A stretch of 64,000 bases of DNA from Mesorhizobium sp. Its GTDB lineage: Bacteria; Pseudomonadota; Alphaproteobacteria; Rhizobiales; Rhizobiaceae. How positions within the stretch are numbered: position 1 is the stretch's first letter; each line of letters starts with the position of its first letter. Below, one piece after another: positions 26,123-27,997 of the stretch. Made by a program: the position numbers and the translations under genes. The notes under the pieces are model-generated. The model had not been told where the DNA came from, did not search any database, and saw nothing but the letters and a program-made list of their open reading frames with translations. The DNA lies in contig SAQG01000007.1 in assembly GCA_004020315.1 (NCBI GenBank), positions 1 through 64,000 of the forward strand. The letters run 5' to 3'.

Positions 26123-27328
26123 ATGAGAGAAGCGATGGCTGAAGCAGATCTTGAATTTGTCGACGAGGACGATGCGGTCCTAGACCCAAAAGATACAGCT
26201 TCTTTTTCAGAAGCCGTTCTATATTCGTCCGATTGGACGGTTCAAACTGTCATATCCCAATTGACGAATAAAAACATCGACATGAGCCCTCGTTTCCAAA
26301 GGAGAGATGCTTGGTCGATTGGAGGGAAAGGTAGATTTATTGAAAGTGTTATCTTAGGATTTCCTATCCCGCAGATAGTTCTTGCGGAAAGGAAAAATCA
26401 AAGAGGCCAATTTATCGTATTGGATGGAAAACAGAGGTTGCTTTCTCTGTTACAATTTACGGGAAACGCTGAAGGCGCAAAGAATGCTTTTCGCCTTTCG
26501 GGGTTGGAAGTTCGAACAGATCTTATTCGAAAGAATTTCTCTCAGTTGGAAAAGGATCCCGCAAGAAGGGATGATCTGAACGCTTTTTTTAATAATACAA
26601 TTCGGACGGTAGTAATTCGAAATTGGCCAAATACAAATTTTCTTCACACAGTATTCCTTAGATTGAATACGGGAAGCGTTAAACTTTCTCCTCAAGAATT
26701 GCGCCAAGCGATGGTGCCCGGGCCATTTTCAGACTTTATTGATGATACCGCGATTGCGTCGGTCCACGTCCAGAGACTAATGAGTAGAACGACGCCGGAT
26801 CCTCGTATGCGTGACGTAGAGCTTATTGTTCGGTACTTGGCTTATCGGCGGTTCCTTCCTGGGTACTCAGGGAGGATGAAAGAATTTCTTGACAACACTT
26901 GTATGGCGCTTAACGAAACGTGGGAAAAGGTGCAGGTTTCTGTTGGCCTCGATATTGAGCAATTTAACGCAGCTGTTGATGTTCTTATGGATATATTTGG
27001 CGATGACGCGTTGGCCCGAAAGCCTGGTTCGCGATCCTTCAACAGAGCAATTTTCGATGCCCTTGTTTTTTATGCTGCGGATTATGAAATCAGAACGGCT
27101 ATGGCGGCTAACGCTGAGAAAGTCCGACAGCTATACACCTCATGCCTCGCTGATGCGTCGTTCTCGGAGGCCATCGAAAGTGATACAGCCGGTATCCCGC
27201 ACACGTTCGACCGGTTGTCAATTTGGGGGGTCGGACTTCGTGCCGCTCTTCAACAAGACATTAAGGTGCCTGCTCTCGAACCTAGGAAAGACGGGAGCTC
27301 GCGTATAACGTTCGACGGCTTTCACTAG
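26123..27328 (+). CDS. DUF262 domain protein (ParB/GmrS-like N-terminal fold, no HNH/DUF1524 domain)
   Basis: SPRFQRRDAWSIGGKGRFIESVILGFPIPQIVLAE..GQFIVLDGKQRLLSLLQFTG (DGxQR); LRLNTGSVKLSPQELRQAM; AT-rich. Confidence 0.88.
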   Translation: MREAMAEADLEFVDEDDAVLDPKDTASFSEAVLYSSDWTVQTVISQLTNKNIDMSPRFQRRDAWSIGGKGRFIESVILGFPIPQIVLAERKNQRGQFIVLDGKQRLLSLLQFTGNAEGAKNAFRLSGLEVRTDLIRKNFSQLEKDPARRDDLNAFFNNTIRTVVIRNWPNTNFLHTVFLRLNTGSVKLSPQELRQAMVPGPFSDFIDDTAIASVHVQRLMSRTTPDPRMRDVELIVRYLAYRRFLPGYSGRMKEFLDNTCMALNETWEKVQVSVGLDIEQFNAAVDVLMDIFGDDALARKPGSRSFNRAIFDALVFYAADYEIRTAMAANAEKVRQLYTSCLADASFSEAIESDTAGIPHTFDRLSIWGVGLRAALQQDIKVPALEPRKDGSSRITFDGFH

Positions 27329-27997
27329 ATGGCGTCAACTCGCCTTAAAGATCTTAAGATGCGCGTCAGAGAATTGAAGCGCATGCTTTTGCCATCCAAA
27401 TTCGACCCGACCGGCTCTTACAAAGATCCGCTACGCGTAACGACCCGTGCGCTTTCTTTTCGCGTTCTGACACATGCGGAGGTGGAGACGTATTTTGAAG
27501 ACCGCGTTCTTGAAGTGGCCGCAACAGCTCTTGATGCTTGGGAGGCGAGTAAATTTGTTTCCGTTGTTACATTCCATTTGATCGGTTTCGGCGGAAGATC
27601 AACAGATCGTCCACCTGAGACTTTACACGCAACCGAGCAAAATAAATTAAAAGAATGGCCGAGCAAAACGTCGATTGATGATCGATTTTCGAAGTGCGTA
27701 TCGGAATTTCATAAGAGAATTAAGTTCGAAAATCATGGAGTAAAAGAAAGAAATATTATGGAAATGTTCGTTCCAATTGGGTTCGATATGGGAATGTGTG
27801 ACCCAATATTTTTGCAGACAATGAATAATTTTGGAGAAGCTCGGGGAGCAGTGGCACATACAAGTGGGAAGGGTCACGTACAGAAGGCAGTCGACCCGAA
27901 AGACGAATATACTACACTGCAGAAGATTATTGCCTCGTTGGAGACAATCGACGTCGAATTCGATCGCCTTTTGAGGGCCTCAAAAGCTCCAAAATAA
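27329..27997 (+). CDS. HEPN-superfamily protein (putative RNase, HEPN_RiboL-PSP/MAE_28990-like)
   Basis: C-terminal NFGEARGAVAHTSGKGHVQKAVDPKDEYTTLQKIIASLETIDVEFDRLL with RX4H motif; starts immediately after the DUF262 stop codon. Confidence 0.75.
   Translation: MASTRLKDLKMRVRELKRMLLPSKFDPTGSYKDPLRVTTRALSFRVLTHAEVETYFEDRVLEVAATALDAWEASKFVSVVTFHLIGFGGRSTDRPPETLHATEQNKLKEWPSKTSIDDRFSKCVSEFHKRIKFENHGVKERNIMEMFVPIGFDMGMCDPIFLQTMNNFGEARGAVAHTSGKGHVQKAVDPKDEYTTLQKIIASLETIDVEFDRLLRASKAPK

What the first reader, a model, noticed from the sequence alone, without database searches (positions are those of the whole stretch)
26123..27997. AT-rich two-gene DUF262 + HEPN islet: candidate anti-phage or RNA-targeting module
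Seen: 26123-27328 encodes a stand-alone DUF262 protein (RFQRRDAWS, LDGKQRLLSL, LNTGSVKLSPQELRQAM). 27329-27997 encodes a 222-aa protein whose C-terminus EARGAVAH has the RX4H spacing of HEPN RNases. Stop and start abut (TAG|ATG), implying one operon. Base composition is anomalous: hand counts of single 60-nt lines give 22/60 G+C (26401) and 18/60 (27721), against 36/60 in the flank (25741). Known: DUF262 proteins occur in GmrSD and SspE-type defence, usually fused to a DUF1524 HNH domain; HEPN proteins are frequent RNase effectors in toxin and abortive-infection systems. Inference: here the DUF262 NTPase/sensor-like module lacks a visible HNH and may pair with a separate HEPN effector.
Basis: partly seen in the sequence, partly recalled or inferred. 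Interest (0 to 1): 0.85.

Follow-up and report, generated by a model that had tools for sequence, protein, structure and literature searches.

The report
DUF262–HEPN defence pair in swap site
This low-GC pair of genes is very probably a small anti-virus module (a nucleotide-switch protein plus an RNA-cutting partner) of a kind already known from E. coli, and it sits in a chromosomal slot where nearly every Mesorhizobium species carries a different small cargo, very often one that looks like an anti-virus system.

Summary
26123-27328 is a DUF262/GmrSD_N protein without HNH. 27329-27997 is a 222-aa protein at the margin of Pfam HEPN_RiboL-PSP, to which 46 of 48 relatives also match. The genes abut (TAG|ATG), with G+C 0.458 against 0.632±0.017 elsewhere in the window. 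RX4H is conserved in 51 of 51 aligned relatives. A DUF262 gene lies directly upstream, on the same strand, in 38 of 38 genome loci and 10 of 10 viral contigs with room, across six phyla. DUF262 and HEPN distances correlate at r=0.90 (best permutation 0.32).

DUF262+HEPN is not new in kind. PD-T4-2 of E. coli has these domains and blocks T4, and a 2013 survey noted a ParB partner for this HEPN family. This pair is a diverged relative that PADLOC's PD-T4-2_B models do not recognise.

The larger result is its address. It fills the convergent ridA–carB interval, which in Mesorhizobium is a cargo-swap hotspot: 87 of 117 genomes carry low-GC cargo there, in 69 different sets, including reverse transcriptases, a retron, bSEFIR, SIR2, AbiU-like, OLD-like and other DUF262 proteins.

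Most likely mechanism: DUF262 senses infection through nucleotide binding and releases a HEPN RNase. The pairing is shown; the mechanism is inferred.

The parts
26123..27328 (+). DUF262 (GmrSD_N, ParB/Srx-like NTPase) protein, 401 aa, no HNH/DUF1524 domain; invariant D101 G102 x Q104 R105, Q59 R60, R180 x N182, Q191 E192 x R194
   Evidence: Pfam PF03235 E 3e-21; PADLOC NsnA 6.9e-59 and PD-T4-2_A 2.4e-34; conserved residues; best PDB fold matches BrxU (prob 0.97) and ParB-CDP (prob 0.96), E 0.009-0.03
27329..27997 (+). HEPN protein of the RiboL-PSP family, 222 aa, with R172-x4-H177 and a family motif NHGxKE (135-140)
   Evidence: PF18735 27.7 bits, 0.7 below the curated cut-off; 46 of 48 aligned relatives match PF18735; R172 and H177 invariant in 51 sequences; all-helical model with pLDDT 90.6
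25945..28146 (.). hotspot interval (variable cargo) between the stop codons of ridA and carB, G+C 0.475
   Evidence: column conservation across 120 genomes drops at the two stop codons; cargo differs between genomes
25552..25944 (+). left flank: ridA-like (L-PSP) gene of the host, degraded here (in-frame TGA at 25615-25617 and compensating frameshifts), intact in relatives
   Evidence: three-frame translations of the window and of a relative; DNA match in 46 of 61 Mesorhizobium genomes searched
28147..31644 (-). right flank: carB (carbamoyl-phosphate synthase large subunit), core gene, 3' end facing the islet
   Evidence: 1165-aa ORF; carB 3' end found in 145 of 147 Mesorhizobium genomes

Best explanation
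The islet is a two-gene anti-phage module of the DUF262+HEPN kind, a diverged relative of PD-T4-2, carried as exchangeable cargo in a Mesorhizobium defence hotspot between ridA and carB. The upstream DUF262 protein is a ParB/Srx-fold NTP-binding switch without its own nuclease; it keeps the HEPN protein inactive or recruits it. A phage-derived cue (modified phage DNA would fit other DUF262 proteins) changes its nucleotide state. The HEPN protein then cuts RNA through the R172/H177 pair and blocks phage growth, probably at the cost of the infected cell. Shown here: the domains, the invariant motifs, the obligate and ancient pairing, the same-strand adjacent order, and the defence-rich site. Inferred: physical interaction, the cue, NTP dependence, RNase activity and phage resistance.
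For: DUF262 with an intact DGKQR-type pocket and no HNH; the model's best PDB matches are BrxU, CDP-bound ParB and SspE. HEPN family and invariant RX4H. DUF262 directly upstream in 38/38 and 10/10 loci with room, usually with 0-14 bases between genes. Correlated divergence r=0.90, against a best of 0.32 in 2000 permutations. HEPN diverges faster than DUF262 in 96% of locus pairs. Hotspot cargo matches 351 PADLOC families for 93 proteins, against 9 for 46 flanking host genes. The same site holds DRT-type RT, retron, bSEFIR, SIR2, AbiU-like and other DUF262 genes. PD-T4-2, with the same two domain types, protects E. coli in its native strain and in K-12 (PMC9519451; domains listed in PMC10952713).
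Against: No experiment on any member of this family was found. The window protein scores 0.7 bit below Pfam's HEPN cut-off. Foldseek finds no significant HEPN structure. Two-domain orientation in the fused model is uncertain (pTM 0.68), so contact between the proteins is not supported by modelling. PADLOC's three PD-T4-2_B models do not recognise the HEPN protein.
Confidence: 0.72

Rival explanations
1. Toxin-antitoxin module: the DUF262 protein is chiefly an antitoxin for a constitutively toxic HEPN RNase, and the pair persists by addiction rather than by phage sensing.
For: Tight two-gene operon, upstream gene possibly the neutraliser, effector-like gene diverging faster; HEPN toxins exist in TA systems (PMC3710099).
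Against: A 401-aa NTPase-type partner with a conserved nucleotide pocket is unlike small antitoxins; the site is shared with many non-TA defence types. TA and defence are not exclusive.
Confidence: 0.15
2. DNA restriction module: DUF262 recognises modified or invading DNA and the helical partner helps DNA cleavage or binding instead of cutting RNA.
For: DUF262 relatives GmrSD, BrxU and SspE act on DNA (PMC10952713); the HEPN fold match to solved structures is not significant.
Against: No DNase domain in either protein; the partner keeps the HEPN RX4H signature in every relative.
Confidence: 0.08
3. Non-defence passenger DNA: ordinary low-GC horizontally acquired genes that happened to land in a permissive intergenic site.
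For: Some hotspot cargo is not defence: FAD monooxygenase and ABC substrate-binding genes.
Against: Both ORFs are intact and conserved with a second Mesorhizobium at the same site, and across several phyla and viral contigs; domain types match a proven defence system.
Confidence: 0.05

Closest known systems
PD-T4-2 (E. coli ECOR65; Vassallo et al. 2022)
   Same: DUF262 plus an HEPN protein assigned to PF18735 (PMC10952713); experimentally anti-T4 in native and K-12 hosts (PMC9519451). The window DUF262 matches the PADLOC PD-T4-2_A model at 2.4e-34.
   Different: The window HEPN is not recognised by any of PADLOC's three PD-T4-2_B models; one of those models carries a C-terminal RidA/L-PSP domain that the window protein lacks. 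Here a conserved NHGxKE motif is present.
Ribo L-PSP-HEPN family 'in operon with ParB' (Anantharaman et al. 2013, PMC3710099)
   Same: Same HEPN family name, R/H motif, and a ParB-fold (DUF262-like) neighbour predicted from genomics.
   Different: The 2013 listing gives no mechanism and no test; the window protein has no fused L-PSP domain.
Menshen (NsnA/NsnB/NsnC) and Dazbog
   Same: A DUF262 protein without DUF1524; NsnA is the best PADLOC match (6.9e-59).
   Different: Menshen pairs DUF262 with a predicted OLD nuclease, not HEPN (PMC10952713); no NsnB/NsnC genes here.
GmrSD / BrxU / SspE
   Same: DUF262 NTPase domain; BrxU and SspE are among the best fold matches.
   Different: These carry a DUF1524 HNH nuclease, absent here.
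Core defence hotspots (P. aeruginosa cDHS1/2, PMC10250203; E. coli hotspots, PMC10121019)
   Same: Fixed core flanks, low-GC variable defence-rich cargo, high occupancy.
   Different: Here the cargo is tiny (median 2.1 kb, mostly one to three genes), bounded at the stop codons of two convergent core genes, usually without visible mobility genes; a median of 26 kb is reported for cDHS1.

Membership tests
DUF262 / GmrSD_N (PF03235) | profile match above the curated cut-off | tested here: met
   76.9 bits against a cut-off of 33.2
DUF262 / GmrSD_N (PF03235) | conserved D-G-x-Q-R nucleotide-pocket motif | tested here: met
   D101, G102, Q104 and R105 invariant in 32 sequences
GmrSD type IV restriction enzyme | DUF1524 HNH nuclease fused or adjacent | tested here: not met
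   no DUF1524 match in either protein; the interval holds only the two genes
HEPN superfamily, RiboL-PSP family (PF18735) | profile match | tested here: met
   window protein 27.7 bits (E 3.1e-6), 0.7 below the cut-off; 46 of 48 relatives match
HEPN superfamily, RiboL-PSP family (PF18735) | R-x4-6-H catalytic signature | tested here: met
   R172 and H177 invariant in 51 of 51 sequences; RGxxAH in 11 of 11 viral-contig copies
HEPN superfamily, RiboL-PSP family (PF18735) | HEPN helical bundle | tested here: inconclusive
   confident all-helical model, but no significant Foldseek match; HEPN toxin 7ae8/7ae6 at E 1.1-1.5
HEPN superfamily, RiboL-PSP family (PF18735) | RNase activity | not testable with these tools
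   needs purified protein
PD-T4-2 | component A (DUF262) | tested here: met
   PDLC04027 E 2.4e-34, although NsnA scores better
PD-T4-2 | component B by PADLOC models | tested here: not met
   no match to PDLC04028, 04029 or 04030 in the HEPN protein; one of 31 relatives matches at E 0.036
PD-T4-2 | adjacent DUF262+HEPN genes | tested here: met
Menshen | NsnB and NsnC next to NsnA | tested here: not met
   only the DUF262 and HEPN genes in the interval
Core defence hotspot | same core flanks, variable cargo in many genomes | tested here: met
   117 genomes with a left-hand core marker and carB; 87 low-GC occupied, 69 distinct cargo sets
Core defence hotspot | cargo enriched in defence genes | tested here: met
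   351 PADLOC families for 93 cargo proteins against 9 for 46 host genes; AAA ATPases inflate the count, per-protein scans confirm several systems

The most novel reading that the evidence does not exclude
The ridA–carB gap is a genus-wide, integrase-free cassette port of Mesorhizobium in which whole one-to-three-gene defence systems are swapped stop codon to stop codon by recombination in the flanking core genes, and its many unannotated cargos, this DUF262–HEPN pair among them, include several undescribed defence systems. For the pair itself: an NTP-gated DUF262 switch controlling a separate HEPN RNase, a mechanism not yet shown for any DUF262 protein in the literature searched.
Probability: 0.5. 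Interest if true: 0.7.

Novelty: new member of a known kind. Interest (0 to 1): 0.5.

Why it matters
DUF262 proteins without an HNH domain are found in several proven systems, but how they pass a signal to an effector is unknown. A compact, widespread and strictly paired DUF262–HEPN family makes that question directly testable. The site matters more broadly: one short, easily amplified interval between ridA and carB gives a catalogue of small defence-like modules across a genus of agricultural nitrogen-fixing bacteria, many unannotated, with close relatives carrying different cargo.

Tried and rejected
1) Filing the pair as PD-T4-2 outright: rejected because component B fails PADLOC's three models. 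2) Filing it as Menshen because NsnA is the best PADLOC hit: rejected, no NsnB/NsnC. 3) The RidA half of PADLOC's long PD-T4-2_B model hits the RidA-like gene just upstream of the islet, which suggested a split HEPN/L-PSP system. Rejected: that ridA is a host gene present in relatives without the islet, is degraded here, and no RidA lies beside the pair in the non-Mesorhizobium loci. 4) Looking for intact PD-T4-2_B proteins in 300 genomes around G309 and 299 of the phylum: only RidA halves were found, so no direct comparison with the E. coli protein was possible. 5) Folding a read-through fusion of the two proteins (possible because the stop and start are in frame) to look for an interface: pTM 0.68, so no claim is made. 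6) Profile comparison with HEPN partners of plasmid DUF262 genes: related for Bradyrhizobium (E 1.4e-5), not detectable for two E. coli plasmid partners. 7) Defence enrichment around the pair in other genomes: 90 PADLOC families for 91 neighbours, the commonest being methyltransferase and type IV restriction models that match only two neighbours each, so modest and not used as main evidence.

Full report
WHAT IS THERE. The DUF262 gene (26123-27328) and the second gene (27329-27997) abut as TAG|ATG. The hand counts of G+C are correct, and the 1875-base islet at 0.458 lies far outside the rest of the window (mean 0.632, SD 0.017, minimum 0.579). The low-GC stretch runs from the end of a ridA-like gene (25944) to the end of carB (28147).

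PROTEINS. The first protein matches GmrSD_N/DUF262 (PF03235, 76.9 bits) and, in PADLOC, NsnA of Menshen (6.9e-59) and PD-T4-2_A (2.4e-34). Neither protein has an HNH/DUF1524 match. The D-G-x-Q-R pocket motif is invariant in 32 relatives. In the fold search of the read-through model, the best PDB matches are BrxU (E 0.009, probability 0.97), ParB with CDP (E 0.034, 0.96) and SspE (E 0.13); these are suggestive, not significant at 0.001. The second protein reaches 27.7 bits for HEPN_RiboL-PSP (PF18735), 0.7 below the curated cut-off, but 46 of 48 aligned relatives match that family. R172 and H177 (RX4H) and E53 are invariant in 51 sequences, including partners from plasmids with only 12-20% identity. 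AlphaFold gives a confident helical protein (pLDDT 90.6, pTM 0.86). Foldseek finds nothing significant; HEPN toxin chains appear at E 1.1-1.5. The fold test is therefore inconclusive, and the HEPN assignment rests on the profile and the motif.

PAIRING. A scan of 85,488 species genomes found 39 loci for the HEPN family, in Alphaproteobacteria, Acidobacteriota, Actinobacteria, Cyanobacteria, Lachnospiraceae and Ignavibacteria. In every locus with enough upstream DNA (38 of 38) a DUF262 gene lies directly upstream on the same strand; in one Microcystis locus it is broken into two frames. Typical spacing is 0-14 bases. Ten of ten viral contigs with room show the same. DUF262 and HEPN distance matrices correlate at r=0.90 over 27 loci, against at most 0.32 in 2000 permutations; HEPN is the more diverged partner in 96% of comparisons. 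The pair travels and evolves as a unit.

WHERE IT SITS. In the genus, only the window's genome and one other (LSJC280B00, G053) carry this HEPN family among 148 searched, and both carry it at the same place. The place is the convergent interval between ridA and carB. I fetched it from 120 genomes. In 117 with a left-hand core marker and carB, 103 intervals are at least 600 bases long and 87 of these have G+C below 0.56; these 87 have median length 2083 bases, median G+C 0.475 and 69 distinct cargo sets. In 84 of the 117 the nearest left marker is ridA, otherwise a neighbouring core gene. Near-empty intervals exist (56-396 bases). Alignment columns lose conservation at the stop codons on both sides. 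Genomes with the closest carB sequences (G056, G033, G138; 93-94% identical) carry different cargo.

CARGO IS DEFENCE-RICH. Ninety-three representative cargo proteins match 351 PADLOC families at 1e-5; 46 flanking host genes match 9. AAA ATPases each match many models, so the ratio is inflated, but per-protein scans give clear cases: a Drt6/Drt4-type reverse transcriptase (6.9e-160), a retron III-A-type reverse transcriptase (7.8e-92), bSEFIR (9.6e-99), AbiU (9.9e-67), SIR2 and OLD/AriA-like proteins, and two further DUF262 proteins with different partners. Pfam adds AIPR, RloB, PRTase-CE and others. Some cargo is not defence (FAD monooxygenase, ABC substrate-binding protein, judged by eye). 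Transposase genes were seen in two large intervals (IS1595-type by Pfam, one by eye); integrases are not among the 25 commonest Pfam families, but the list was truncated, so their absence is not proven. Flank-mediated homologous recombination, as proposed for integrase-free hotspots (PMC5635113), is an inference.

WHAT IS KNOWN. PD-T4-2 from E. coli ECOR65 contains DUF262 and HEPN PF18735 (review PMC10952713) and protects against T4 in its native strain and in K-12 (PMC9519451). The 2013 HEPN survey lists the Ribo L-PSP-HEPN family as 'operon with ParB' (PMC3710099). The kind is therefore known and experimentally supported, though I found no mechanism paper. The window's HEPN protein is not recognised by any of PADLOC's three PD-T4-2_B models, one of which includes a RidA domain, so I call this a diverged member of the DUF262+HEPN kind, not PD-T4-2 itself. 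Core defence hotspots are known in P. aeruginosa (PMC10250203) and E. coli (PMC10121019). I found no report of the ridA–carB site in the papers searched, a limited, open-access search.

MECHANISM. By analogy with BrxU and SspE, where DUF262 nucleotide binding or hydrolysis gates a nuclease (PMC10952713), the most likely scheme is a DUF262 sensor/switch controlling a separate HEPN RNase, with growth arrest or death of the infected cell. Pairing, motifs and context are shown; interaction, trigger, NTP use, RNase activity and protection are not.

Noticed in passing
25552-25944: The ridA-like gene next to the islet is degraded in this genome (in-frame TGA at 25615-25617 and compensating frameshifts), while the copy in LSJC280B00 and in other relatives is open; several Mesorhizobium genomes have two or three tandem ridA copies here.
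   Followed up: partly
P0045 (149 aa, 16 contigs): A metagenomic protein joins the first ~100 residues of this DUF262 to the last ~50 of this HEPN (FIVL|EARGSVAH), an internal deletion of the operon or an assembly chimera.
   Followed up: no
28090-28140: A GC-rich palindromic intergenic repeat (CCCCCTCTGGCCTGCCGGCCATCTCCCCCACAAGGAGGGAGAT) lies between the HEPN gene and carB; similar copies occur at other positions near the site in other Mesorhizobium genomes.
   Followed up: no
L153, L118 and three other genomes (clusters 4 and 5): A recurrent two-gene cargo of the hotspot: a KAP-like P-loop NTPase (PADLOC PDC-S49) with a second protein that is probably the DUF4238 match, in five genomes.
   Followed up: no
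L200 and seven other genomes (cluster 0): A most frequent low-GC hotspot cargo is a ~260-aa protein with an HsdR N-terminal-like (PF13588, below cut-off) domain, in two genomes together with a Drt6/Drt4-type reverse transcriptase.
   Followed up: partly
L147:6591-8291: Another hotspot cargo pairs a DUF262 gene with a 213-aa protein with no Pfam or PADLOC match, possibly a further DUF262 partner type; L205 pairs DUF262 with a 273-aa protein of another kind.
   Followed up: no
G000:C195:1713-2009: The best RidA-domain match to the PD-T4-2_B model elsewhere in the same genome (6.5e-22); not examined further.
   Followed up: no
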